The notes below the pieces were generated by a model, which saw nothing but the letters and a program-made list of their open reading frames with translations, was not told the DNA's origin and searched no databases. Below are positions 2,212 through 17,325 of a DNA stretch of 64,000 bases, piece by piece. The DNA lies in contig NZ_SHKK01000001.1 in NCBI RefSeq assembly GCF_004217135.1, positions 6,386,001 through 6,450,000 on the forward strand, written 5' to 3'. A program made the position numbers and the translations under genes. Numbering within the stretch: the first letter of the stretch is position 1; each line of letters begins with the position of its first letter. The stretch comes from Micromonospora violae. Its GTDB lineage: Bacteria > Actinomycetota > Actinomycetes > Mycobacteriales > Micromonosporaceae.

Positions 2212-2285
2212 GGGGCTGTGGCGCAGACTGGTAGCGCACCTCGTTCGCATCGAGGGGGTCAGGGGTTCAAATCCCCTCAGCTCCA
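2212..2285 (+). tRNA. tRNA-Ala(CGC)
   Basis: A complete 74-nt cloverleaf. The acceptor stem GGGGCTG pairs with CAGCTCC and includes the G3-U70 wobble that marks alanine tRNAs; the discriminator is A. The anticodon stem-loop CCTCGTTCGCATCGAGG gives anticodon CGC, and the T-arm holds TTCAAAT. CCA is not encoded. The 3' end is the core attachment site of the integrated element, and integration keeps the tRNA intact. Confidence 0.95.
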
Positions 2286-2287
2286 CC
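2262..2287. other. Left attachment site (attL core)
   Basis: The 26-bp core covers the T-arm and the 3' acceptor strand of tRNA-Ala plus two further bases (CC). An identical copy occurs at 17069-17094. The integrase gene starts reading towards this site from 3597. Confidence 0.92.
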
Positions 2288-2349: not shown

Positions 2350-3597
2350 TCAGCCCAGAAGAGCCGAGCCGGGACGGTTCCCCGCGGCCTCCCGAAGCGC
2401 CGTGCTGACGATGTTGCGACGGCGGTTCTTCTTCGGCCACCAATGCACGTACGTCTCCAGCGTGATCCGCAGACTGGAGTGCCGTAGTGCGTTCTGCACG
2501 TCGGTCGGGTCGGCACCCGAGGTGATCAGGCGAGTCGCGAAGTAGTGCCGCAGGGAGTGAAATGTGCCTTCGTCCGGCCAGCCCGCCGCCTTGCGCCAAC
2601 CTCGCCACAGGTCGGACCAGCGCTGATCATGAATCGGCTTGCCCTGGTCGTCGGTGAACAGCAATGCGACTGACCGGCGTTTCGCCTGCTTCCCCGGGTC
2701 GGGAGTCCCGGCGGTGATGTCGGGCAGCTCCACCAGTGCGGGCGGATACTTCCGGACATGCTCCGCGAGCACCGTAGCTACGTGGTCGTCCAGGTCCACG
2801 TCACCGACAGAACCGGCCTTGGGTGGGGCTAGGTAGAACCCGCTGTAAGCTCCTCTGTGGAAGCGAAGCTGCTGAACCACGTGCAGCTCTTGACGCGGCC
2901 GGTCGACACACCGCACGCCATCTTCCAGGCCGAGCACCTCGCCCAGTCGCAGACCTTCACCCGCACCGCACCAGATCGCAGCCTGGTAGCGGTCTGGGAC
3001 AACGTCGACCAGGGCGAGCATGTCCTCATCGGTCGGCACCCACTTCGGAGCGCGTGAAAAGCCACGCAGGATGGCCGACAGTCGCACCGCCTTGCACGGG
3101 TTATCGGAAATTACCTTGTCCGCTACAGCGGCGTTCATGACGGCGTTGAACAGGTCGAAGTAGGTCTTCACTGAGGACTGCGCCACGTTATTGCGCAGCA
3201 GAAGCGCCACCCACTCCAGGACGTCCGTGACGGTAATCGCTCGCATCTGCCGCTTGCCGATCTGCGGATAAAGGTGGTGCCGGAGGCGTGACTCTGTGTG
3301 CCGCTGGTAATCGAGTGCTTGCCCAATCTGGCGCGAGAGCCGCCACCGCTCGCCGTACTCGCGGAAGGTGATATGCCGGTCCGCCTGGTCAATCTTGGTC
3401 TCTTCCGCGATGCCGGCCCGGGCGTTAACGTCGAATTCCTCGGCATCGACCTTTCTCTCAAAGAACCGGGTTTTTGAATTGCCAGCGGCATCGTTGTACC
3501 GGACCCGCCACCGCTTACCTTCGCCGTGCCGCTTGGAGGGAAGCCGCTTCTTGTCCGGTCCCCGTTTGGTGAGGTACCACAGGTCATCGATGGGCAT
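2350..3597 (-). CDS. int: Tyrosine site-specific integrase
   Basis: A 415-residue tyrosine recombinase that would integrate and excise the element at tRNA-Ala. After an N-terminal arm-binding region and a SAM-like core-binding domain (about 75-180), the catalytic domain shows Arg217 (GLRLGE), His347/Arg350 (HSLRHYF), His373 (ALRHSS) and nucleophile Tyr383 (ETYVHWW). All catalytic residues are present. The gene ends 62 bp from the att core, as usual in AICEs. It follows xis with one base between stop and start, so it is probably co-expressed with rep and xis. A deleted relative remains at 17158-17325. Confidence 0.96.
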   Translation of the reverse strand: MPIDDLWYLTKRGPDKKRLPSKRHGEGKRWRVRYNDAAGNSKTRFFERKVDAEEFDVNARAGIAEETKIDQADRHITFREYGERWRLSRQIGQALDYQRHTESRLRHHLYPQIGKRQMRAITVTDVLEWVALLLRNNVAQSSVKTYFDLFNAVMNAAVADKVISDNPCKAVRLSAILRGFSRAPKWVPTDEDMLALVDVVPDRYQAAIWCGAGEGLRLGEVLGLEDGVRCVDRPRQELHVVQQLRFHRGAYSGFYLAPPKAGSVGDVDLDDHVATVLAEHVRKYPPALVELPDITAGTPDPGKQAKRRSVALLFTDDQGKPIHDQRWSDLWRGWRKAAGWPDEGTFHSLRHYFATRLITSGADPTDVQNALRHSSLRITLETYVHWWPKKNRRRNIVSTALREAAGNRPGSALLG

Positions 3598-3598
3598 G

Positions 3599-3784
3599 TC
3601 AGGCCGCCTTGTCAGTGAACCAGGCCCGCACGTCGGCGGGGTCGTATCGGAGGTGTCGGCCGACGCGGGACGCGCGGGGGCCGGTTCGGCGGTGACGCCA
3701 TTGGTAGAGGGTGCCGATGGGGATGCCGAGGAACGCCGATACGTCGGTGACGGTCCATAGGCGTTCGGTGGTGGGGGTGGTCAT
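3599..3784 (-). CDS. xis: Excisionase, MerR-like HTH
   Basis: A 61-residue winged-helix protein of the HTH_17/excisionase type. WTVTDVSAFLGIPIGTLYQW is the helix-turn-helix, and GPRASRVGRHLRYDPADVRAWF is the wing and end motif typical of AICE Xis proteins. It directs the integrase towards excision by bending DNA at attL/attR. Its ATG overlaps the rep stop codon (ATGA at 3784-3781), showing translational coupling, and int follows at once. Confidence 0.92.
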   Translation of the reverse strand: MTTPTTERLWTVTDVSAFLGIPIGTLYQWRHRRTGPRASRVGRHLRYDPADVRAWFTDKAA

Positions 3785-5127
3785 CGGGGTTCCTTTCTGG
3801 CTTGCTGTCGTGCGGCTCGGATGCGGTCTCCGATTGCGGTGGCGAGTTCGAGTTGTTCGGGGGTGTCGTAGCCGATGCCGAGGATTTGCCAGTTGTTGAC
3901 GACCAGGACATCGGTGTCTTCGGGCAGGCCGGCGTCGGTGAGCGCCGTGTGGATTTGGTGGGTTCGGCGTTCGGCGCGAAGGTTTTTGAAGGTCGTGGAG
4001 TAGATGCGCGATTTGGTGAGGAAGTGGCCTCGGAAGCCGAGCATGTGTGCCCAGTGGCGCAGTTTGAGATCGGCGTATTGGTCGAGTCCGCCGAGGTCCC
4101 AGGCGGTTTGGATCATCGTCCGGTGGTGCGCGGAGACCTGGAGTCGGTCGATGTGCATTTGGGAACGGATGCGCCGGTCTCCGGTCTCCGTAGCGCCGGT
4201 GCCCTTGGTGGCGTACTTGGCGATGTAGCCGGCCAGGCGGGTGTCGGCCACGGCCTGGTCCCCGTCGTCGTCTCCGTCGTTGATGTCGATGTCGGTGGCG
4301 GTGATGTCTTTGACGTCGACCTGTGCGCCCCAGCCGAGGAGCAGCGCGGTTGCGTCGGGTCGGATGGTGTCCAGCTCGACGGAGGAAGCCGCGGAACGCA
4401 CCGCGTCAGCCAGAACGTCAGGGGTGAGCCATGTTGGGGGCGAGGAGTCCGGCCCGGACGGGCCATCGGCGCGGATGACGGCGTGGAAGTGGACCAGGCC
4501 GCGCCGCTGGTATTCGGCGACTTTGGCGTAGGAGATCCGTAGGTGTGCGCCGGATGCGCGGACGGTGAGGCCACCAGCGGCGGCGACGGCGCGGCGTAGG
4601 GCGATGGTGAACCGGTGCCAGAGTTGGCCGCTGTGCGCTTGCCACAGCACGGCCCCGGTGTAGTCGTAGGTGGTCGGGTTGAGCGGGCTACCCAGCAGCG
4701 GGTGGCCTTCGGGGTGCCAGCGTCCGCAGGAGCAGGGTCGCTTGCCGGGCCGGTTGTGCACTGGGCCGAACGATGGGGCGGTGAGGGTGACGAAGAGGCG
4801 TGTGGACCGGGCCACGGTGGTGGGGACGCCTTTGCCGCCGGACATGCCCGCGTGGATGAGGTGCCAGGCGTCGGCGGCGTACCGGTCGGCGCAGGAGGGG
4901 CAGACGGCCGCGCGGCGGGTGCCGCAGGAGGACCAGACCCGTCCTTGCCGGGAGGCGATCAGGTCACCGCTGCCCATGTGCCGGACCTCGAACTTGCCGA
5001 CCAGCCGGACCGGTTGCAGGCAGCCTTTGACGCTCTCGACGCCAGTCCGCCATTGCTTGTAGGCCGGCGAGCGCATCCATCGGGTCAACGCCGCTTCGGC
5101 GTCGTACACGGGGGTTGGTAGTGCCAC
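3781..5127 (-). CDS. repSA: RepSA-like rolling-circle replication initiator
   Basis: A 448-residue initiator of the pSAM2 RepSA family, which nicks the element's double-strand origin after excision. Visible are the metal-binding HUH-like motif VHFHAVIRADG (near residues 212-222), the downstream YIAKYATKGT segment (near 301-310) with candidate catalytic tyrosines, and Cys pairs in the N-terminal part (CPSC near 76; CSC near 132) suggesting a zinc site. GTG 5127 is preferred because AAAGGAG lies just upstream; the upstream in-frame extension lacks a ribosome site. Its end overlaps xis by 4 nt. The replication origin is often inside or beside rep in these elements but was not located. Confidence 0.9.
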   Translation of the reverse strand: MALPTPVYDAEAALTRWMRSPAYKQWRTGVESVKGCLQPVRLVGKFEVRHMGSGDLIASRQGRVWSSCGTRRAAVCPSCADRYAADAWHLIHAGMSGGKGVPTTVARSTRLFVTLTAPSFGPVHNRPGKRPCSCGRWHPEGHPLLGSPLNPTTYDYTGAVLWQAHSGQLWHRFTIALRRAVAAAGGLTVRASGAHLRISYAKVAEYQRRGLVHFHAVIRADGPSGPDSSPPTWLTPDVLADAVRSAASSVELDTIRPDATALLLGWGAQVDVKDITATDIDINDGDDDGDQAVADTRLAGYIAKYATKGTGATETGDRRIRSQMHIDRLQVSAHHRTMIQTAWDLGGLDQYADLKLRHWAHMLGFRGHFLTKSRIYSTTFKNLRAERRTHQIHTALTDAGLPEDTDVLVVNNWQILGIGYDTPEQLELATAIGDRIRAARQQARKEPR

Positions 5128-5221
5128 GGGATTTCTCCTTTCGGAGACGGACCAGCCGTGCTCCAGCGGATGAAGCACGGCAGGTCAGAGCGAGGGGGAA
5201 TCAGTGCGCGTAGGTGGTGAA

Positions 5222-6163
5222 TTAGTGCGTGTAGCCGTTGGCCGTGGCCGGGGTGAACCGGTCGGCGACTTTCGACGCGATCGACGCGGGTAGCCGGGTG
5301 GCCTGTTGGATGTCGACGGCGGTGACCGGTCGGTCCAGGTCGGCAACGAGTCGCCGGATCTGGGTCTGCATCCCGGAAGGGATGCCCAAGCCGTCCAAGG
5401 CCGCGGGCTCCCCGGTGGTGTCCCTGGTTGAGTCCGTCCAGCGATCCGGGATCGAGGCCGCAACCGGCGCCGCAGCGGGTGCCGCGATCGGGGCCGGTGC
5501 CGGGGTGGTGGGTTCCGCGACGACGGCCGGCACGGTTACCGGAGCCGGAGCCGCGGCGGGAGCCGGGGCGGGGTCGGGGGTTGGGGTGTTCGTGGGCAGG
5601 GTGATGGCCCGTCGTGCTTGGGTGCAGCGTGCCTGCACGATCGGCATGACCTCGGCCAGGAAGAACACGAGGATCGGCACCATGAAGTGCGCGGCCAACA
5701 TCCCGGCGCTGATGCCGCCTTCACGAGGCAAGATCGCTGGTACGACGTTCATGACGAGCGTGGAGCCCAGCAGGAACCGCTTGAGCCAGTCGACCGCCTT
5801 GGAGTCGATCTCGATCTCTCGGGCGATCATCGCGGCTTCCCAGCGCAGAACGGTGATGAGGATGCCGACCAGGCACGGCTCGACGCCCCAGCAGCCCCAC
5901 CACACCGGGTCAGCCGGGGTGAGGTGACCGGCGAGGAAGTCCTGAACGCCGGTCGTGGTGAACACTGACCCGATGGCCAGGAACAGCCACAGCGAACGGG
6001 TCACGCTCACCCGCAGCCGCTCAATCTCCACGATGTCCAGCGCGGAGTCCTGCTCCAGGTCGTGCAGCTGCCGGGCGACGTCGAGGCGCTTGCTCAGCTT
6101 GCGGACCGGACGAGGCTGCTTCGCCGGCCGCTCGGTGCTGTCGTGGTTGTTCACCGTCGTCAC
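5222..6163 (-). CDS. DUF2637 spread-type membrane protein
   Basis: A 313-residue membrane protein. After a charged N-terminus come four likely transmembrane segments (about 54-76, 92-108, 130-147, 152-175), then an Ala/Pro-rich low-complexity linker (about 190-230) and a C-terminal helical domain (about 250-310) resembling a winged-helix tail. DUF2637 proteins are found in Streptomyces plasmids and AICEs beside traB and are thought to help plasmid spreading within the recipient mycelium. Its GTG start overlaps the traB stop by 4 nt (GTGA), so the two are translationally coupled. The exact function is inferred from family and context. Confidence 0.78.
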   Translation of the reverse strand: MTTVNNHDSTERPAKQPRPVRKLSKRLDVARQLHDLEQDSALDIVEIERLRVSVTRSLWLFLAIGSVFTTTGVQDFLAGHLTPADPVWWGCWGVEPCLVGILITVLRWEAAMIAREIEIDSKAVDWLKRFLLGSTLVMNVVPAILPREGGISAGMLAAHFMVPILVFFLAEVMPIVQARCTQARRAITLPTNTPTPDPAPAPAAAPAPVTVPAVVAEPTTPAPAPIAAPAAAPVAASIPDRWTDSTRDTTGEPAALDGLGIPSGMQTQIRRLVADLDRPVTAVDIQQATRLPASIASKVADRFTPATANGYTH

Positions 6164-7515
6164 CGGCCCGCGGTGGTGAGTTCGGTGTGGGGCCAGCCCG
6201 CAACTCGCACCAGCTCGGCAATGTCGGAGTCGTCGCAGTAGGCCGCCCGCACCCGCATCGGAGTCCGCGAACGCTGCTTGACGACGAACCCGATACCGGC
6301 CGAGTCCGCGACGTTCGGGATCTCGTCAGCGAGAGCACCCCGACGGCGCATGTCGTCACCAAGGACCATGTCGACGTGTCCGGCCGACGTGGCCCGCAGG
6401 CACACCCGCAGGGAGAACAGGTCTCGCTGAGGGATCACGTCCTTGGTGGGCTCTTGCAGAGCGCCGATGACGCTGCCACCCAGAGCGCGAGCCTGCGACA
6501 GGATCAGCGGCAACACCGACTGAACGCCCTTGGTCAGCGACCGGTCGCCGTACCCGGTCACCGCTCCCAGCTCATCGATCAGCAGCAGATCCAGGGGCGT
6601 TTCGCGTGACAGCTCGAACGTGCGCCGGCCCTGCTCCGCCAAGGTCTTCTTCCGGGCCTGCATGGTCTCCCAGAACCCGGCGACCACCTCCACGATGTCG
6701 CGGTCGGTCTCGGCGTAGCGGTAAGACACCGGCCGCAAGGCGTTCAACTCGGTGCCCTTGGGGTTGACCACGTGCACCCGCACCAGGCCGTCACGGATCA
6801 GCGGCGCGCACGCCCGCAGCGCCATCCACGTCACCGAGTTCTTGCCCGACCCGGTGGCCCCGCTGACCAGCCAGTGTTGCCCGATCAGCGGCGCAGACCA
6901 GTCGGTGTCGTGCTCGGTCTCGCCCAGGTACACGTTCGCCAGGCTCGTCGCGTCGGCGTCAGCCGCAATCTCCGGCGGGACGATCACCTCAGTGAACGGC
7001 TCCGAGCGCTGCACGATCAGCGCGATCACCTGGGACCGCACCCGCTCGACGCCCACCCGTTCCGCGTTCAACCCGACCGCCAGGGCTTCCGCGGCTTCCT
7101 CCCACAGCTTCACCGTCTGCCCAAGGAGAAGACGCACGTACACCGTCTCCGTCGACGGCGAGTGACTACGAATCCGGACGATCCGAGGCACGTTGACAAA
7201 CCCGGTCCGCCGATTCACCGTTACCAGGCCACACTCCTCGGTAACCCGGCTCCACCACCGACCCAGGTACGCCCGCGACAGCCACCGCCGACGCAGCGCC
7301 CGCAACTGCGGAGCCGCCACCGCCGCCCACGAGTCCGGGTGACCCCGGTACCAGCCCACACCCGCCGCGAGCACACCCGCCGCCACACCACCGGTGGTCA
7401 CCGGCCCCAGCTGCGCCATCGTGGTAGCGACCGCCGCCGGAGCAGCCACGAACCCCGGATGCCGCGCAGCCCAACCCGCGACCCGCCACTCCCACCCCTG
7501 AGTACGCTTACCCAT
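6160..7515 (-). CDS. traB: TraB-type FtsK/SpoIIIE DNA translocase
   Basis: About 451 residues. An N-terminal region with two hydrophobic segments (about 20-60) anchors it; the ATPase domain carries Walker A GATGSGKNS (near 219-227) and Walker B LDLLLIDELGAV (near 308-319). This is the single-protein conjugation motor of Streptomyces-type elements, moving double-stranded plasmid DNA between hyphae. The Walker A has Asn instead of the usual Ser/Thr after Lys, as is common in this family. ATG 7515 is preferred (GGTAGG 8 nt upstream); GTG 7524 is possible. A hairpin at 7576-7612 separates it from the small genes upstream. Confidence 0.93.
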   Translation of the reverse strand: MGKRTQGWEWRVAGWAARHPGFVAAPAAVATTMAQLGPVTTGGVAAGVLAAGVGWYRGHPDSWAAVAAPQLRALRRRWLSRAYLGRWWSRVTEECGLVTVNRRTGFVNVPRIVRIRSHSPSTETVYVRLLLGQTVKLWEEAAEALAVGLNAERVGVERVRSQVIALIVQRSEPFTEVIVPPEIAADADATSLANVYLGETEHDTDWSAPLIGQHWLVSGATGSGKNSVTWMALRACAPLIRDGLVRVHVVNPKGTELNALRPVSYRYAETDRDIVEVVAGFWETMQARKKTLAEQGRRTFELSRETPLDLLLIDELGAVTGYGDRSLTKGVQSVLPLILSQARALGGSVIGALQEPTKDVIPQRDLFSLRVCLRATSAGHVDMVLGDDMRRRGALADEIPNVADSAGIGFVVKQRSRTPMRVRAAYCDDSDIAELVRVAGWPHTELTTAGR

Positions 7516-7575
7516 CTCCCGCACCTACCTTCATCAGTTCTCTTGCAATTCGATGACCACTGTTTTTGGGTAAAG

Positions 7576-8555: not shown

Positions 8556-8879
8556 TCACGCCGCCTTGAGGCTCTGCGCCTTCCACGTCAAACCGCTACG
8601 ACCGTCGCGCTCCCAGTGCGACACCGTCGCCCCGATCAGCTCCACCAGGTCGCCCTCCTCGATTCCCTGCGGGTTCACCGAGAGAGTGACCTTCAGTTCC
8701 TCGCCCTTGCCCCGGTAGCCGTCATCGGTCGCCAGCGGCTTCGCGAACACACCCACCACGTACAGCGGGTCATCGGTCCCGTAAGCCGTGAGCACCCGAC
8801 CCTCCTGATCCATCTTGATCGACGGCTCCTCCACCACCCGCAGCTTGAAGCCAGCCATGTTCACCGGGATGTTCCGCAT
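8556..8879 (-). CDS. Conserved AICE/plasmid protein, possible OB-fold
   Basis: A 107-residue protein beginning MRNIPVNMAGFKLRVVEEPSI with a beta-rich pattern ending in GATVSHWERDGRSGLTWKAQSLKA. Proteins of this look occur in Streptomyces plasmids and AICEs near traB; strand spacing and the W..dGRSG ending hint at a small OB-like nucleic-acid-binding fold. That is inference. Start ATG 8879 has GAAGGAG about 9 nt upstream. It heads the minus-strand cluster and is divergent from the GntR-kinase gene, so it shares the 8880-9138 control region. Confidence 0.6.
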   Translation of the reverse strand: MRNIPVNMAGFKLRVVEEPSIKMDQEGRVLTAYGTDDPLYVVGVFAKPLATDDGYRGKGEELKVTLSVNPQGIEEGDLVELIGATVSHWERDGRSGLTWKAQSLKAA

Positions 8880-9008
8880 CTCGCCTCACTCCTTCGCCGT
8901 TACTACTCGTCATCCGTGTGTCGCCTGTGCGCCAGGTGGGCACTCAGAGCACCTACCCCAACCGCTCGATGTAACAGAGCGGATCAGCTTGGATCAGAGG
9001 CTAACAGG

Positions 9009-9044
9009 TTGAATCAGTGTGCGTCAACAGATACAATCTGATTC
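9009..9044 (+). promoter_or_regulatory. Promoter with overlapping inverted-repeat operator for the GntR-kinase operon
   Basis: A -35 TTGAAT (9009-9014) and a -10 TACAAT (9032-9037) are spaced by 17 bp. The inverted repeat GAATCAG (9011-9017) / CTGATTC (9038-9044) encloses the promoter, and GGATCAG occurs twice more just upstream (8982-8998). The GntR domain encoded at 9139 is the obvious candidate to bind here (autoregulation). Confidence 0.6.
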
Positions 9045-9138
9045 GCAATCAGGGACGGCTGACCTGCGAAAACCTTGATGCGCAGCCCGGTCGGGAGTGC
9101 CCTTCTCTGCCCCATGACCCGCCAAGACAAGGAGTCTG

Positions 9139-9978
9139 ATGACCACCCAGCCAGAGCCAGGGGACGCGCTACAGAGGGGGACAAGCGCCCTCGTGATCGC
9201 GCAGGCCATCCGCAACGACATTCAGGCCGGCCGGCTGGCTCACGGGCGGCAGCTGCCCGGCACTAGGGCGCTAGCCGAGTCTTGGGGTACCAGCGTTGCC
9301 ACAATCAATCGGGCAATGTCGATTCTTGCCGAGGAGGGGCTCGTCATCAATCGAGCCCGCTCAAGCCGAATCGTTCACAACCCGGAAGTTTCCGCAGACA
9401 AGACGGGATCGCGGGTGATTTTGATCGGGGGCTATGCGGGCTCAGGCAAGACGGAGCTTGGGCGCATCATCGCCCGTCAAGCAGGTTGGGCGATCCTCGA
9501 TAAGGACACCACCACGCGGCCAGTGGTCGAGGCAGCGCTAGAGCGACTAGGGCAATCCCCGCACGATCGAGAGTCAGAGACCTACCTGACAGCTATAAGA
9601 CCCGCTGAGTATGAAGCGCTGCTTGCCACTATGACGGAGAACTTGCAGTGCGGCTCATCGGTGATCGTGACAGCACCCTTCATTATGGAGCTACGCGAGA
9701 AAGCATGGTGCGATCGCCTGGCTGCGACTGTGGCGGCCTATAACGGCAGGCTTCAAGTCGTCTGGGTGCGCTGCGACTCCGAGACCATGCAGATGTATAT
9801 CCGGCGTCGCGGGGCTGCCAGAGATGACTACAAAATCGCGAATTGGGCAGAATACGTAAGCCGTCTTGACCTCGCTTTCGAGCCCAAGATCCCGCACGCG
9901 ATAGTAGACAACTCCGCAGGTGCCAGACCCTTGCAGGATCAGGCTAGGGAGCTTCTTAGTAAGTTCACATCGCTGTGA
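9139..9978 (+). CDS. GntR-type winged helix fused to a P-loop kinase-like domain
   Basis: A 279-residue fusion. Residues about 15-80 are a GntR winged helix (LPGTRALAESWGTSVATINR, AEEGLVINRARSSRIV). Residues about 92-279 are a P-loop phosphotransferase-like domain with Walker A GGYAGSGKT (97-105), a DKDTTTR segment near 121 and a lid-like [11 protein letters not shown] near 220-230, as in AAA_33/zeta-like kinases. It has AAGGAG before ATG 9139 and a clear promoter/operator upstream. It overlaps the next gene by GTGA, so the two proteins are made together. It probably controls the element in response to a nucleotide-type ligand, or phosphorylates a substrate; neither is shown. Confidence 0.75.
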   Translation: MTTQPEPGDALQRGTSALVIAQAIRNDIQAGRLAHGRQLPGTRALAESWGTSVATINRAMSILAEEGLVINRARSSRIVHNPEVSADKTGSRVILIGGYAGSGKTELGRIIARQAGWAILDKDTTTRPVVEAALERLGQSPHDRESETYLTAIRPAEYEALLATMTENLQCGSSVIVTAPFIMELREKAWCDRLAATVAAYNGRLQVVWVRCDSETMQMYIRRRGAARDDYKIANWAEYVSRLDLAFEPKIPHAIVDNSAGARPLQDQARELLSKFTSL

Positions 9979-10517
9979 GGAAAGGGCTGATCCTTTACGG
10001 TGCTCCGGCCACCGGCAAGGACACGATTACTGCTGAACTAGTTCACCGTGAGCCTTGCTTTGAGCACTTTAAGCGCCTGAAGTTCGGCAGTGGCAGGAGT
10101 GCCGGCTACCGGATGATTGACCATGGGCAGGCTCAAATTCTGCGTCAAAGCCCAGAAATGATCCTGTGGGAGAACAGTCGGTACGGGTCGACGTATTTCG
10201 TAGATCGGCCTGGGCTTGAAAGGGTTTGGGATCTAGGTCGCGTGCCGGTTGTGCACCTTGGTCAGGTCGAGGCAGTTGAAGCAATTGCCAGAGATTCGGC
10301 GTCAGGTGCAATCTGGACAGTGGTAGAGCTTCATTGCCAACCGGCCATACTCTACGACCGGATCCGGTCTCGGCAAACTGGAGACGACGTGCAGCGCTTT
10401 GCAGCGGTCGCACATACGAACCGTCTGCCGGTTGCGGACATTAGGATCGATACAGGCTCTGTGCCGGTAGCCGAAGCAGCGGAGAAGATTGCTGACCTTG
10501 TGCACCGCTCCTCTTGA
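9975..10517 (+). CDS. Guanylate-kinase-like P-loop protein
   Basis: A 180-residue protein with Walker A GAPATGKDT (9-17), then FKRLKFGSGRSAGYR in the place of the GMP-binding segment, and ENSRYGSTYFVDR resembling the YGT motif of guanylate kinases. The C-terminal half (LIDE-like region, then RIRSRQTGDDVQRF as lid) is shorter than usual. It may phosphorylate a nucleoside monophosphate or related compound. GTG 9975 lies inside the stop region of the GntR-kinase gene (4-nt overlap), so the two form one functional unit. Chromosomal gmk normally sits elsewhere, so this is an accessory copy. Confidence 0.72.
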   Translation: MRKGLILYGAPATGKDTITAELVHREPCFEHFKRLKFGSGRSAGYRMIDHGQAQILRQSPEMILWENSRYGSTYFVDRPGLERVWDLGRVPVVHLGQVEAVEAIARDSASGAIWTVVELHCQPAILYDRIRSRQTGDDVQRFAAVAHTNRLPVADIRIDTGSVPVAEAAEKIADLVHRSS

Positions 10518-11861: not shown

Positions 11862-12104
11862 CAGGGCCAGGGCGACAAGGTCGTTCCTTAGGGTTGTTTT
11901 GTCTGGATGGTGTTCCGGGCCGCCGGGTTGGTTGGGTGTGGCTCAAGGTCGTTTGCCGTCAGGTGGCTATGGACGAGCGGCCGCCCAGCCAGCCCAGGGC
12001 GCCCTTGGCCGCTGATTGAGATCTGCGAGTCGTCGCTTGCTAAGGAACTGCCGGCGGGGTCGTCCGAGGTGACCTGGATCTGGGTGCTTCGGGAGGACGG
12101 CTTG

Positions 12105-13286
12105 GTGCAGGTATGGATAGGCGTGGACGCGGGCAAGCAGGCTCACCACGCAGCGGCGGTGGACGTGGCCGGGCGGGTGCTGTGGTCGACGCGGGTGGCC
12201 AATGATCAGCAGACGATCGCGGACTTGATCGGGCGGGTCGGCGCGGATGACGAGGTGGTGTGGGCGGTCGACCTGGTCGGCTGCGAGACCGCGCTGCTGC
12301 GGGCGATGTTGGCGCTGGCCGGGCAGCAGACGGTGTATATCCCAGGCCGCACGGTCAAGACGATGGCTGCCGGGTTCGCCGGCGAGGCCAAGACCGACGC
12401 CCGTGACGCGGTGGTCATCGCGAACACCGCCAGGATGCGGCGTGACTTTCTGCCGGTGGAGACACCGACGGAGCTGATCGCCAAGCTGGCGCTGTTGGTG
12501 GCGCACCGCGCCGACCTGGTCGAGGACTGGGTCCGCACCGTGAATCGGCTGCGCCGCCTGATGCTCGGAATCTCCCCGGTGTTGGAACGCGCGTTGACCT
12601 TCACCAACGTCGCGACGCTGATTCTGATCAGCGCCTATCAGACGCCCGAGCAGATCCGCGCCGCTGGTCGCGACCAGCTCATCGCTCATCTGCGCCGGCA
12701 TCGGGCGGTGAACGCCGTCAGGGTCGCCGATCAGGCGTTGGCAGCCGCGGCTGAGCAGGATCTCACCCTGCCGGGACAGGACACCGCTGCTGCGCTCGCT
12801 GGTGAGCTGGCCAGTCATCTGCTGCAACTGCACCAGCGCATGAAGAACACCGACAAGGCCATTGAACAGGCGTTTGGCACTCACCCGCAGGCCGGCATCA
12901 TTCGCAGCCTGCCCGGCATGGGGGCGTTGGCGGCGGCGGAGTTCATCGTCGCGGTCGGGGACCTGTCGACCTTCGCCAGCCCTGATCACCTGGCCGCCTA
13001 CGCGGGCCTGGCGCCGGTGGCCCGTGACTCTGGCAAGCGGGTCGCCAACCTACGCCGGCCGCAGCGTTACAACCGGCGGCTGCGCCACGTGTTCTACATG
13101 TCCTCGCTGAGCACGCTGCGGATGAACGGCCCGAACCGGGACTACTACCAGCGCAAACGCGCTGAGGGGCGCAAACACCAGCAGGCGTTGATCGCCCTCG
13201 CCCGTCGCCGCGTCGATGTGCTGTGGGCGCTGCTGCGCGACAATCGCTGCTTCCAACTCCAACCACCGCCACCAGCGCCCGTCTAA
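12105..13286 (+). CDS. IS110-family transposase
   Basis: A 393-residue transposase. The N-terminal RuvC-like DEDD domain starts with VWIGVDAGKQAHHAAAVD and contains KTDARDAVVIANTAR. The C-terminal domain holds IIRSLPGMGALAAAEFIVAV, the helix-hairpin-helix-like region, and GLAPVARDSGKR with the serine proposed as nucleophile in this family. GTG 12105 has a GGGAGG site about 8 nt upstream (12091-12096) and fits the family N-terminus; the longer open frame upstream is not protein-like. The gene is intact and could be active. Confidence 0.93.
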   Translation: MQVWIGVDAGKQAHHAAAVDVAGRVLWSTRVANDQQTIADLIGRVGADDEVVWAVDLVGCETALLRAMLALAGQQTVYIPGRTVKTMAAGFAGEAKTDARDAVVIANTARMRRDFLPVETPTELIAKLALLVAHRADLVEDWVRTVNRLRRLMLGISPVLERALTFTNVATLILISAYQTPEQIRAAGRDQLIAHLRRHRAVNAVRVADQALAAAAEQDLTLPGQDTAAALAGELASHLLQLHQRMKNTDKAIEQAFGTHPQAGIIRSLPGMGALAAAEFIVAVGDLSTFASPDHLAAYAGLAPVARDSGKRVANLRRPQRYNRRLRHVFYMSSLSTLRMNGPNRDYYQRKRAEGRKHQQALIALARRRVDVLWALLRDNRCFQLQPPPPAPV

Positions 13287-13513: not shown

Positions 13514-13654
13514 TAACCGCAGGGGCGCGTGAACCGCCGAGAGCCAGGCACAATCCGACCGTGACGATCACGATCACCAACTACCGAGACCTGGACGGTC
13601 TGACGACTGCCCGACGAGGAGATCCGCTTTACCCGCCCGGTACGGTTGTTGACC

Positions 13655-14317
13655 ATGCAGCGGTTGGCGCTCTTCGATCTCGACAACACGCTCGTGGACC
13701 GTTCGGAGGCATTCCGACGTTGGGCGGTCGAGTTCTGCGCCGATCGCGAACTGCCGGACGACGCGTTGGCCTGGCTGATCGCTACGGATCAGGACGGGGC
13801 CGTGCCCCGCGACTGGTTCTTCGGCGAGGTGACCGAGCGTTTCGGCCTGGCAGCCTCGGTGGATGAAGCATGGAGGCAGTACCGACATCGGATGCCGGAG
13901 CTGGTGAGCTGTCCTCAAGAAGTGCGGGCGTCGCTGAGACTACTGCGCGACGAGGGCTGGACGGTCGCGATCGTGACCAACGGCCAGGCCGACAACCAGC
14001 TAGGGAAAATCAGGCGTACCGGGCTGGACCAGTGCGTCGATGCCTGGGCAGTGTCCGGGGAGTTGGGCATCCGGAAGCCAGCACGCGAGATCTTCGAGGC
14101 AGCGGCCCGTGGGTGCGGCCTCGATCTGCGGGGCGGGGGCTGGGCGATCGGTGACAGCCCTGTGCATGATGTCGAGGGTGGCCGCGCGGCAGGGCTTGCC
14201 ACCCTGTGGGTCAGCCGAGGGAAGGACTGGCCAACGGAACTCACCCCGCCCGACCGCACCGTCACGGACGTCGTGGCCGCTGTCCAAGTGCTGCGAGGCG
14301 AGGACTCCGGCCTGTAG
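13655..14317 (+). CDS. HAD-superfamily hydrolase
   Basis: A 220-residue haloacid-dehalogenase-type phosphatase. Motif I is FDLDNTLVDR (nucleophile Asp8, Asp10), motif II AIVTNGQ, motif III the Lys in GIRKPAREIF, motif IV GDSPVHDVEGG. A helical C1 cap (about 18-90) suggests small-molecule phosphates as substrates; it resembles the phosphoglycolate/pyrophosphatase-like group. The true substrate is unknown. ATG 13655 starts two residues before the conserved strand; upstream TTG codons lack support. It is accessory cargo between the IS110 copy and the right end of the element. Confidence 0.85.
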   Translation: MQRLALFDLDNTLVDRSEAFRRWAVEFCADRELPDDALAWLIATDQDGAVPRDWFFGEVTERFGLAASVDEAWRQYRHRMPELVSCPQEVRASLRLLRDEGWTVAIVTNGQADNQLGKIRRTGLDQCVDAWAVSGELGIRKPAREIFEAAARGCGLDLRGGGWAIGDSPVHDVEGGRAAGLATLWVSRGKDWPTELTPPDRTVTDVVAAVQVLRGEDSGL

Positions 14318-14603: not shown

Positions 14604-15998
14604 TCAGGAGAGGTTATCGCTCTGGTCTGCTGACGCTTCAATTTCTAGGCGGGATTGAGGAACGGCTGCCTTCGTGCGAGCAAGCACCCCATAATTGGAA
14701 TTCCCTTCAGCTTCTCTGAGATGCCACCCCTCTGGCCAGATGTGCTGGATTTTTTGTCCGTCAGCCTTCACTATTGCGTGAGCGCCTAGCATTCGTGGAT
14801 TCTGGGTACGCTTGAACAAGAAATCTGCGTTTGAAAAACTGACTTTTCCTTGGAACTTCACGTTATTGAACCAGGCCACACCGCGAAAGCGGACACCTGT
14901 AAAGTCGGCAGGTCCATCAAAAACCGTCTTACCGTCGAACCTGGCAACATAGAAGTCGGCGTTTCTGAACGTCGCGTGGTCTTGGAACGTGACGTCATGC
15001 CACCAGCTCGCACTGTGGAAACAGGTAGATTCGAAGTTTGCTTCTCCGGCAAATATGGCTCCCGAGAATTTTGCCGTCTCGACATAGCCCCTCAGGATTC
15101 GGAAGTCGCGAAGATACGCTCCGGCGAGGTTGATGGACATGCCCGGCCAGAACCATGAGGAAGGGCTGGGGTCAGGCAAGTCTTCGCGCTTCATGGGCCC
15201 TTCCTTGCCGAGTTCCTCTAGGTGTTTTGTGAGGATATCCTGAGCGCCCGACCTCACTTCGAGTTCCTCTTTTGCCTCCTTCACAACTGCGGCGTCGACA
15301 GTAGGCGGCAATTTGCTAGGCGGCGTGTAAGGCATCCGGAGATACGCGCAGAAAACGTTGACGACTGTCTGGCGCTGCCCAATGTTGGATTGGGCCACGC
15401 GTTCTAGCGCATACATTCCGCCTAGGCGGACGGCGGCGTCAGGTGACCCCAGTTGCTCGACAGCCTTGGTATATAGCTCTGTCACGCGTCGTTCGGCAGC
15501 GTCGGCTTCCGTGTGTGCCTGAGTTTGAATGGCGAGTTGATGCATTGACTCAGAGAGACGCTGACGCCGGACCGCTAGCAGCAGGGCGGCTACAGCCCCA
15601 CCGCTGGCCGCAATTCCCAAACCATACTTGATCGATTCGATCTGAAGCCGCGAGCGGTCAGTTTTTGATGTTGCGTTTCCTGCCACTTGCAGCATCACCA
15701 AAAGCGTAACGCAGCCAATGAGCACCATAATGCAAGCGGTCACAGTGATGCCATAATCCGAAAGCAGTCGAGTGCCGAGGGAATTTTTGACATCACTGCG
15801 ATCTGAAGAGGCGTTGCGCACCTGCCGAAACATCCAAAGCCCGGCGCCGAGTCCTGCAGCGCCTAAAGCGATCAGCCAATGGTCCGCCATTTTGGCAAGC
15901 GCATGTCCTATTGGGATGAGATTTTCTAAGGTCAGGTCGAGTGAGATGGCTGCAAAGCCGAACAGTAATAACCCGAACCCGACCAACTTTTTCTTCAT
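14604..15998 (-). CDS. Membrane pentapeptide-repeat protein
   Basis: About 464 residues. The N-terminal half has four likely transmembrane helices (near residues 5-22, 36-52, 82-104, 125-147). A conserved linker follows (YTKAVEQLGSPDAAVRLGGM, then ERVAQ and QRQTVVNVFCAYLRMP). The C-terminal half has loose pentapeptide repeats (A-(D/N)-F-type steps such as FSGAIFAGEANFES and HATFRNADFYVARF), forming a right-handed beta-helix. Actinobacterial proteins of this build are frequent but unassigned; a sensing or immunity role is possible. The DNA is clearly more AT-rich than its neighbours, and direct repeats flank the gene, both signs of separate acquisition. ATG 15998 is preferred over TTG 16034. 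Confidence 0.8.
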   Translation of the reverse strand: MKKKLVGFGLLLFGFAAISLDLTLENLIPIGHALAKMADHWLIALGAAGLGAGLWMFRQVRNASSDRSDVKNSLGTRLLSDYGITVTACIMVLIGCVTLLVMLQVAGNATSKTDRSRLQIESIKYGLGIAASGGAVAALLLAVRRQRLSESMHQLAIQTQAHTEADAAERRVTELYTKAVEQLGSPDAAVRLGGMYALERVAQSNIGQRQTVVNVFCAYLRMPYTPPSKLPPTVDAAVVKEAKEELEVRSGAQDILTKHLEELGKEGPMKREDLPDPSPSSWFWPGMSINLAGAYLRDFRILRGYVETAKFSGAIFAGEANFESTCFHSASWWHDVTFQDHATFRNADFYVARFDGKTVFDGPADFTGVRFRGVAWFNNVKFQGKVSFSNADFLFKRTQNPRMLGAHAIVKADGQKIQHIWPEGWHLREAEGNSNYGVLARTKAAVPQSRLEIEASADQSDNLS

Positions 15999-16132
15999 GG
16001 CTTGAATCGTCTGGTAGCGAAGCAGCCAGCGCAAGCGGCAACGTTGAGGGTCCGCACCTGACAGGCCAGGTCACGGCAGAGCGGCGTCCGCCGTGCCCAC
16101 ACTTCATAACCCTGGTCCAGAAGGGGCGGACG

Positions 16133-16615: not shown

Positions 16616-16657
16616 AAGGTCGATGGCGCAAGTGTGGAGACTTCTAGCGTCAGGCGT

Positions 16658-16915
16658 ATGGAGTTCGACCCGGACGCGCACATCGACCACGGCGCACCGC
16701 TGCCGCCCTACCGCCAACTGGCCGGCATCCTCGCGGCCCGGGTTCAGCGCGGAGACTGGCAACCCAACCGGGCGGTCCCTTCGGAGGCGCATTTGGTGCA
16801 GGAGTACGGCGTCGCCCGTGCGACCGTGCGACGCGCGATCGCCGTGCTGGTTGATCAGGGTGTGCTGTTCGTGGTGCCGCAAAGAGGCACGTTCGTCAGC
16901 CCGAAGGCCCAATAG
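16658..16915 (+). CDS. Small GntR-family regulator (winged helix only)
   Basis: An 85-residue protein made almost only of a GntR winged helix: PPYRQLAGILAARVQRGDW, PSEAHLVQEYGVARATVRRA, DQGVLFVVPQRGTFV. There is no effector domain, as in several AICE and plasmid regulators of replication or transfer (KorSA-like). ATG 16658 starts at the conserved MEFDP; a GTG at 16634 is in frame. It lies immediately before the right arm site and att core, so it could sense or control excision. Confidence 0.8.
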   Translation: MEFDPDAHIDHGAPLPPYRQLAGILAARVQRGDWQPNRAVPSEAHLVQEYGVARATVRRAIAVLVDQGVLFVVPQRGTFVSPKAQ

Positions 16916-17068: not shown

Positions 17069-17094
17069 GGGGTTCAAATCCCCTCAGCTCCACC
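17069..17094. other. Right attachment site (attR core)
   Basis: Exact 26-bp copy of the 3' end of tRNA-Ala. The sequence before it does not form a D-arm or anticodon arm, so this is not a second tRNA gene. Confidence 0.92.
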
Positions 17095-17157: not shown

Positions 17158-17325
17158 TCAGTGAGAATCCAGGGCCTTCGGGCCCTGTTTTCGTTTGGCG
17201 CTGGCGTCGCGGAGAGCACCGCTGATGATGTTGCGGCGGCGGTCCTTCTTCGGCCACCAGTGGACGTAGGTGTCCAGCGTGATCCGCGGGCTGGAGTGCC
17301 GCAGCGAGTGGAAGGTGCCCTCATG
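17158..17325 (-). pseudogene. Internally deleted integrase C-terminus, remnant of an earlier element
   Basis: The minus strand encodes TFHSLRHSSPRITLDTYVHW and then WPKKDRRRNIISGALRDA, matching residues 346-399 of the resident integrase. A stretch of 22 residues between the two LRH motifs is missing, probably by recombination between short repeats. The N-terminal 345 residues are absent. It stands in the same place and orientation to the att core as int does to attL, so it marks an older insertion at the same tRNA. The real C-terminus is lost into unrelated sequence. Confidence 0.85.
17170..17196 (+). terminator. Rho-independent terminator
   Basis: A 7-bp stem (CAGGGCC, loop TTCG, GGCCCTG) is followed by TTTTCGTTT on the plus strand, a rare canonical form in this GC-rich genome. 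It lies inside the integrase remnant. A second hairpin (CCCGCCGA/TCGGCGGG) lies at about 17125-17146. Confidence 0.75.

What the first reader, a model, noticed from the sequence alone, without database searches (positions are those of the whole stretch)
9009..10517. GntR-kinase fusion coupled to a guanylate-kinase-like protein under an operator-enclosed promoter
A DNA-binding winged helix is joined to a P-loop phosphotransferase and made together with a second P-loop enzyme. The promoter is enclosed by GAATCAG/CTGATTC, with more half-sites upstream. This could be a nucleotide-sensing switch or kinase system that couples the element to host metabolism. It is the window's best candidate for an undescribed small system.
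Basis: partly seen in the sequence, partly recalled or inferred. Interest (0 to 1): 0.7.

Follow-up and report, generated by a model that had tools for sequence, protein, structure and literature searches.

The report
Kinase-fused repressor of a mobile element
A mobile DNA element in a soil actinobacterium is probably kept silent by a repressor whose sensing half is a kinase, made together with a second kinase-like protein, which suggests that a cell metabolite decides when the element moves.

Summary
P1 (9139-9978) is a GntR winged helix fused to an AAA_33 P-loop kinase domain; P2 (9975-10517), overlapping by 4 nt, has the guanylate-kinase fold. The operator is larger than reported: five ANCAG boxes at exact 10-bp period (8971-9017), a run that 0 of 5000 shuffles approach, found once in the 7.14-Mb genome, in a block 90% conserved in four orthologues (flanks 49-58%).

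The pair lies in a 14.8-kb AICE (26-bp att repeats, tRNA-Ala), divergent from a Pra/SCO3933-like gene, where SCO3932-type repressors sit; a kinase domain replaces their UTRA sensor. Operator type co-varies with P1's recognition helix, including one natural swap. In 151 Micromonospora genomes, 28 of 28 P1-type places have P2 directly downstream. On Streptomyces plasmids the pair recurs with an XRE-type helix, beside DUF1932 and HAD genes.

Best reading: a Kor-type autorepressor with a kinase-derived metabolite sensor, coupled to a second enzyme. P2 lacks the guanine-contact residues of Gmk, so 'nucleotide-sensing' is unproven. Nine paper searches bearing on the pair listed no description of it. 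New variant of a known kind; no biochemistry.

The parts
9139..9978 (+). P1: GntR winged helix (residues ~19-76) fused to AAA_33 P-loop kinase domain (residues ~92-279, Walker A GGYAGSGKTE)
   Evidence: Pfam over cut-off for both domains; model pLDDT 89.3; 76-sequence alignment with invariant G103 K104, K122 D123, R154, R224, R228 D229, K232
9975..10517 (+). P2: guanylate-kinase-fold protein, Walker A GAPATGKDT, 4-nt overlap with P1
   Evidence: model pLDDT 96.0; Foldseek and VIA-align top hits GMP kinases; 91-sequence alignment
8971..9017 (+). operator array: five NNANCAG boxes at exact 10-bp period
   Evidence: 0 of 5000 shuffles reach a run of 3; conserved in four orthologues; found once in the genome
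9009..9037 (+). sigma-70-type promoter of the P1-P2 operon (TTGAAT-17-TACAAT)
   Evidence: 1 found in the region, 0.4 expected; hexamers retained with changes in four orthologues
9038..9044 (+). inverted half-site CTGATTC just after the -10 box
   Evidence: kept exactly in 1 of 4 orthologues
9024..9030 (+). additional box TCAACAG, out of the 10-bp phase
9129..9134 (+). Shine-Dalgarno AAGGAG of P1
   Evidence: read directly
8556..8879 (-). Pra/SCO3933-family-like gene, divergent from P1
   Evidence: NF051478 E 7.5e-11, 42.1 bits, below the cut-off of 80
3781..5178 (-). RepSA replication initiator of the AICE
   Evidence: PF20199 E 1.9e-146
6160..7524 (-). FtsK/SpoIIIE-like transfer protein of the AICE
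   Evidence: PF01580 E 3.3e-4, 20.6 bits, below the cut-off of 24
2350..3597 (-). tyrosine integrase
   Evidence: XerC/XerD models, E 6.3e-14 and 1.4e-10, below their cut-offs
2262..2287 (+). attL: 3' end of tRNA-Ala(cgc)
17069..17094 (+). attR: exact 26-bp direct repeat of attL
13646..14317 (+). HAD hydrolase inside the element, 41% identical over 216 aa to the HAD beside the pair on Streptomyces plasmid pPZG101; possible accessory gene
   Evidence: an IS110 transposase gene, 11907-13286, lies between

Best explanation
P1 is the Kor-type master repressor of this AICE. Its GntR domains bind the 10-bp-phased array between P1 and the pra-like gene and repress both directions, including their own operon. 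The kinase domain takes the place of the UTRA sensor of SCO3932: it binds (and perhaps phosphorylates) a small metabolite, and this changes DNA binding, so that pra is expressed and the element excises and replicates. P2, translated by coupling, is a GK-fold phosphotransferase that changes the pool or phosphorylation state of the same metabolite. Supported by comparative evidence: the operator, its link to P1's recognition helix, the pairing, the kor-like position. Inferred from KorSA/SCO3932: repression of pra. Inferred only: the metabolite switch and P2's role.
For: Operator statistics, conservation and uniqueness. Recognition helix and operator co-vary: SVATIxRAM with the ANCAG array (6 of 7 loci have a run of 3 or more; L123 fails the strict test), SxFTIxxAM with CTGNTA[GT] (19 of 19 loci with 3-5 copies, 0 of 300 shuffles each). 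L084 is a natural swap: Rep 81%, FtsK 82%, Spd-position gene 67%, Pra 72% like the window (integrase only 27%), but its P1 is 53% identical and it has the other operator type. Pra-family gene divergent here and in L092 and L088, all three below the curated cut-off. SCO3932 binds the SCO3932/SCO3933 intergenic region (PMC8584621). Catalytic-site residues invariant in 76 sequences. P2 adjacent at 28 of 28 and 28 of 33 places. Precedent for a P-loop kinase fold as sensor: BzdR (PMC3602430, passages).
Against: No binding, kinase or excision data exist. The pra match is below the curated cut-off, and the divergent proteins of L080 and L083 match no NCBIfam model at E 0.01. A second small GntR protein (16634-16915) lies near attR and could be the real repressor. 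GntR-kinase genes without P2 exist (5 of 33 places; also L013, L015, L124), so P2 is not indispensable. The loci are related, so the helix-operator correlation is not independent evidence locus by locus. L127 and L012 have neither operator type; L013, L015 and L016 have only two CTGNTA[GT] boxes.
Confidence: 0.6

Rival explanations
1. Dead-enzyme sensor: the kinase domain only binds a ligand, as in BzdR, with no catalysis; P2 is a separate metabolic gene.
For: BzdR keeps the Walker A motif, binds benzoyl-CoA and has no detectable shikimate kinase activity. P2 is missing at 5 of 33 places.
Against: P-loop, K122-D123 and lid residues R224/R228/D229/K232 are invariant in 76 aligned sequences, and the P-loop, LDKD and lid motifs also read intact in the XRE-type relatives L098-L101, L017 and the S. 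rimosus plasmid protein, more than a pure binding domain would need.
Confidence: 0.3
2. Metabolic or detoxification cassette: the two kinases with HAD and oxidoreductase partners modify a small molecule; the helix only autoregulates the cassette and does not control the element.
For: The DNA-binding domain is exchanged (GntR or XRE type) while the kinases stay together. On plasmids, kinase, P2, DUF1932 and HAD lie within 4 kb in 51 of the 60 P2 records listed. Other partners are a KDPG/KHG aldolase and a dehydrogenase of the 2-hydroxyacid type.
Against: In the window and its closest relatives the pair sits in the kor slot with one shared operator and a divergent pra-like gene. Of the 33 genus places a HAD match was seen in 4 and an oxidoreductase match in none, within the stretches fetched.
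Confidence: 0.25
3. Toxin-antitoxin addiction module, the AAA_33 domain being zeta-toxin-like.
For: Sub-threshold Zeta_toxin matches in P1 and relatives; found on mobile elements.
Against: P1 scores 15.1 against a cut-off of 22.3; P2 is an enzyme fold; each gene occurs without the other.
Confidence: 0.06

Closest known systems
KorSA (pSAM2) and SCO3932 of AICEs
   Same: GntR winged helix, element-borne; like SCO3932, divergent from a Pra/SCO3933-family gene with putative operators in the shared intergenic region
   Different: no UTRA domain; a P-loop kinase takes its place; coupled to a GK-fold gene; operator is a 10-bp-phased array, not the published SCO3932 motif
BzdR/BoxR regulators (XRE helix + shikimate-kinase-like domain)
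   Same: helix-turn-helix joined to a P-loop kinase fold used as sensor
   Different: different helix family in the window, different kinase subfamily, conserved catalytic set, mobile-element context, partner kinase
Guanylate kinase (Gmk)
   Different: E73 and D104 of E. coli Gmk align with W65 and Q97; about 17% identity to the top structure; no curated guanylate kinase model listed for P2
Chloramphenicol phosphotransferase-like family (PF07931)
   Same: weak sequence match, 62 of 91 P2 relatives at E 0.01 or better
   Different: P2 itself is below the cut-off (18 against 22 bits); no CPT among the 50 structures listed for P2

Membership tests
AICE | tyrosine integrase, RepSA-type replication gene, FtsK/TraB-type transfer gene | tested here: met
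   RepSA over the Pfam cut-off, FtsK and integrase matches below curated cut-offs
AICE | integration in a tRNA gene with direct-repeat att sites | tested here: met
   26-bp repeat at 2262 and 17069
KorSA/SCO3932 (GntR, HutC subfamily) | GntR winged helix | tested here: met
   PF00392 51.2 bits, cut-off 27
KorSA/SCO3932 (GntR, HutC subfamily) | UTRA effector domain | tested here: not met
   no UTRA match at E 1 or better; AAA_33 occupies the region
KorSA/SCO3932 (GntR, HutC subfamily) | shares an intergenic region with a Pra/SCO3933-family gene (as SCO3932 does) | tested here: inconclusive
   divergent gene matches NF051478 at E 7.5e-11 but with 42.1 bits, below the curated cut-off of 80
KorSA/SCO3932 (GntR, HutC subfamily) | represses itself and pra | not testable with these tools
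   only comparative operator evidence
BzdR/BoxR | XRE-type helix | tested here: not met
   window protein is GntR; some relatives are XRE-type
BzdR/BoxR | shikimate-kinase-like domain | tested here: inconclusive
Guanylate kinase | GMP kinase fold | tested here: met
Guanylate kinase | match to curated model | tested here: not met
   no guanylate kinase model listed for P2 in NCBIfam or Pfam at E 1; 3 of 91 relatives match PF00625 at E 0.01
Guanylate kinase | guanine-contact residues | tested here: not met
   sequence alignment to E. coli Gmk; residue roles recalled
Ribose 1,5-bisphosphate kinase (PhnN) | closer to PhnN than to Gmk | tested here: inconclusive
   hmmsearch 14.6 bits in two pieces against 18.3 for Gmk; hhalign does not separate them (92.7 and 92.3%)
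Chloramphenicol phosphotransferase-like (PF07931) | score over the curated cut-off | tested here: not met
   18 bits against 22 for P2
Zeta toxin | PF06414 over the cut-off | tested here: not met
   15.1 bits against 22.3

The most novel reading that the evidence does not exclude
A mobile-element-borne metabolite switch in which the repressor is itself an active kinase that makes or consumes its own ligand, with P2 and, in relatives, HAD phosphatase, DUF1932 or 2-hydroxyacid dehydrogenase and KDPG-aldolase partners adjusting the same phosphorylated, sugar-acid-like pool. This would be the effector system that has been missing for Kor repressors of actinomycete conjugative elements and plasmids.
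Probability: 0.28. Interest if true: 0.8.

Novelty: new variant of a known kind. Interest (0 to 1): 0.6.

Why it matters
What signal tells an AICE to excise and transfer is open: PMC8584621 states that the effector of KorSA has not been identified. Here the sensor domain is a recognisable enzyme with a conserved active site and a co-conserved partner, so ligand screens, kinase assays and footprinting become concrete. The pair recurs in Micromonosporaceae (an FtsK-like match lies in 20 of the 33 genus stretches examined) and in 65 plasmid records, 61 of them Streptomyces.

Tried and rejected
Chance explanation of the half-sites: CTGATTC alone is not enriched, but the phased array is far beyond chance. 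The repeat finder did not report the array. PhnN identity for P2: not decided. hmmsearch gives 14.6 bits in two pieces against 18.3 in one for Gmk, but hhalign does not separate them; no PhnN over the cut-off in the host genome. Phage origin: no P2 match in 50,697 phage records at E 1e-5 (P1 was not searched there). Defence system: no PADLOC match better than E 0.013 for P1 and none for P2. P2 as replacement of the host's degenerate Gmk: rejected, P2 occurs in only 31 of 151 genus genomes. Conserved third gene downstream of P2: none found in Micromonospora except a HAD gene at 4 of 33 places. Literature: ten searches were made, nine bearing on the pair, its domains or its element and one on BzdR/BoxR; from the listings none is about the pair. 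The library holds open-licence papers only.

Full report

Active sites. In 76 aligned P1 relatives (76 of the 120 listed, of 1010 found) the P-loop lysine, K122-D123, R154, R224, R228-D229 and K232 are invariant. In 91 P2 relatives (91 of 107) G9, G14, K15, D16, K36, Y45, Y70, Y74, R129 and R133 are invariant; one P2 without a full P1 (L103) reads with a damaged P-loop. Aligned to E. coli Gmk, P2 keeps tyrosines at the positions of Y54 and Y82 but has W65 and Q97 where Gmk has E73 and D104 (numbers counted on that sequence; their roles in phosphate and guanine contact are recalled). So P2 probably binds a phosphorylated small molecule, and guanine is not the obvious one.

Operator. Between the pra-like gene and P1 lie five NNANCAG boxes at 8971, 8981, 8991, 9001 and 9011. 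No run of three or more ANCAG occurred in 5000 dinucleotide shuffles of the intergenic region; by a looser measure, any box repeated at 10 or 11 bp, 46 of 5000 shuffles reach three and none four, against five observed; in the 64-kb window no other ANCAG run exceeds two. A four-box pattern with one mismatch allowed finds only this place in the 7.14-Mb genome, and the reversed control pattern none. In four orthologues (L009, L010, L011, L076) the block 8966-9037 is 90% identical to the window, against 49% and 58% in the flanks, and the fixed box positions 96%. The promoter hexamers fall inside the conserved block. Direct-repeat operators are known for some GntR proteins (FarR, NagQ, NanR; PMC4494728, passages), so the repeat layout is unusual but not unheard of.

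Who binds it. Two operator types exist in the relatives, and they follow the recognition helix of P1. Helix SVATIxRAM goes with the 10-bp array (WIN, L009, L010, L011, L076 and L124 have a run of three or more; L123 has a degenerate version that fails the strict test). Helix SxFTIxxAM goes with CTGNTA[GT] boxes, 3-5 copies at 19 of 19 loci, none of 300 shuffles reaching the count in any of them. L084 has the window's type of backbone (Rep 81%, FtsK 82%, Spd-position gene 67%, Pra 72%; its integrase differs, 27%) but a P1 of the second type (53% to the window's, 79% and 85% to L083 and L085) and the second operator. This links the operator to P1, not to the backbone. Loci with other helices are intermediate (L013 and L016, two boxes each) or have neither type (L127); L015 also has two boxes, but its helix was not read.

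Element. attL (2262-2287, the 3' end of tRNA-Ala) and attR (17069-17094) are an exact 26-bp repeat, giving an element of about 14.8 kb with integrase, RepSA, an FtsK-like gene and a Pra/SCO3933-like gene. SCO3932, a GntR-UTRA protein divergent from SCO3933, binds its own shared promoter region, could not be deleted, and is called a KorSA homologue; the effector of KorSA is stated to be unknown (PMC8584621, parts 1-3 of 6 read). In pSAM2 itself pra lies downstream of korSA, so the shared-promoter layout is that of SCO3932. P1 sits in the same slot. The divergent gene is in the SCO3933 family, always below the cut-off of 80 bits, in the window (42.1), L092 (60.0) and L088 (71.6); the divergent proteins of L080 and L083 match no model. 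One locus (L102, G076) has lost P1, the operator, the start of the pra-like gene and the first residues of P2 in what looks like one deletion, which would fit the idea that losing the repressor is tolerated only when pra goes too; n is one.

Co-occurrence. In 151 genomes of the genus, P1 matches at E 1e-30 or better lie at 28 places in 26 genomes and P2 matches at E 1e-8 at 33 places in 31 genomes. All 28 P1 places have P2 directly downstream; 24 are of the GntR type (one, G090:C55, with a stop inside and a shortened P2) and 4 have another helix (L098-L101). Five P2 places lack a full P1 (G076, G123, G085, G102, G125). In 200 genomes of the family, which overlap that sample, strong kinase matches (E 1e-48 or better) lie at 33 places and P2 at 30; 28 are adjacent, 5 kinase places (G525, G466, G582, G571, G492) and 2 P2 places (G076, G102) stand alone. 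One search has 22 further, weaker matches (E 1e-26 to 1e-21); the one I read (L166) is a single-domain kinase. All 22 P2 stretches fetched from the family (L134-L155; L154 is the contig of L014) have the kinase gene upstream, 21 with a GntR helix (20 by match, L147 by reading) and one (L153) with another helix. In a 296-genome phylum sample, own genome included, P2 is found in 4 (E 1e-6) and the kinase in 6 genomes (E 1e-10).

Exchangeable parts. In L098 and L100 the helix is HTH_31 (XRE type) instead of GntR, over the cut-off; in L101 and the S. rimosus plasmid protein the same model matches below it; L017 has no Pfam helix match. On three Streptomyces plasmids looked at, a separate gene annotated GntR lies just upstream, with a UTRA domain in the one tested. 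Of 60 listed P2 plasmid records (65 matched), the kinase is within 4 kb in 53 (7 not among the 60 listed of 90), DUF1932 in 59 (1 elsewhere in a record with two places), HAD in 57 (2 not listed, 1 elsewhere), and all four in 51. Where P2 is missing, L160 has a KDPG/KHG aldolase (PF01081 E 6.2e-30) overlapping the kinase gene by 4 nt and L124 an oxidoreductase of the 2-hydroxyacid dehydrogenase type, by Pfam on the 53%-identical protein of L123. The other P2-less loci (L159, L161-L163, L013, L015) show no clear partner. The company is that of phosphorylated sugar-acid or nucleotide metabolism, and it does not decide between them.

Mechanism and limits. The most economical account is a Kor-type autorepressor whose kinase domain reports a metabolite. 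BzdR shows that a P-loop kinase fold can serve a helix-turn-helix protein as sensor without catalysis (PMC3602430, abstract and passages found by term search). The invariant catalytic set here makes activity plausible but does not prove it. Binding, activity, ligand and effect on excision are all untested.

Noticed in passing
G000:C1:975992-976354 (outside the window); L130, L167-L170, L172: The host genus seems to lack a canonical guanylate kinase: 0 of 41 Micromonospora genomes pass the TIGR03263 cut-off, 40 having a weaker match, while 36 of 37 non-genus genomes of an order sample pass. The match has Walker A GPSGxGR (Lys to Arg) in 6 of 6 read (a seventh, L171, gave no frame by my pattern) and by eye lacks the lid. 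How the genus makes GDP is unexplained.
   Followed up: partly
13646-14317: HAD hydrolase (nearest TIGR02253/YjjG-type models, below cut-off) inside the element, related to the HAD next to the pair on Streptomyces plasmids, separated from P2 by an IS110 transposase gene (11907-13286).
   Followed up: partly
16634-16915: A second, short GntR winged-helix protein (93 aa, no effector domain) just inside attR; a similar short GntR reads in the downstream stretch of L012/L078.
   Followed up: partly
17191-17310: Fragment 72% identical to the element's integrase just outside attR, probably a remnant of another element.
   Followed up: no
14604-16034: 476-aa ORF on the minus strand with an apparently membrane-spanning start; its beginning resembles by eye a protein family found downstream of P2 in L010/L077, L081 and L091.
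   Followed up: no
L125, L126, L128: A conserved Streptomyces plasmid cassette: GntR gene, XRE-type kinase, GK-fold protein, convergent DUF1932 oxidoreductase and HAD hydrolase; the paper searches listed no description.
   Followed up: partly
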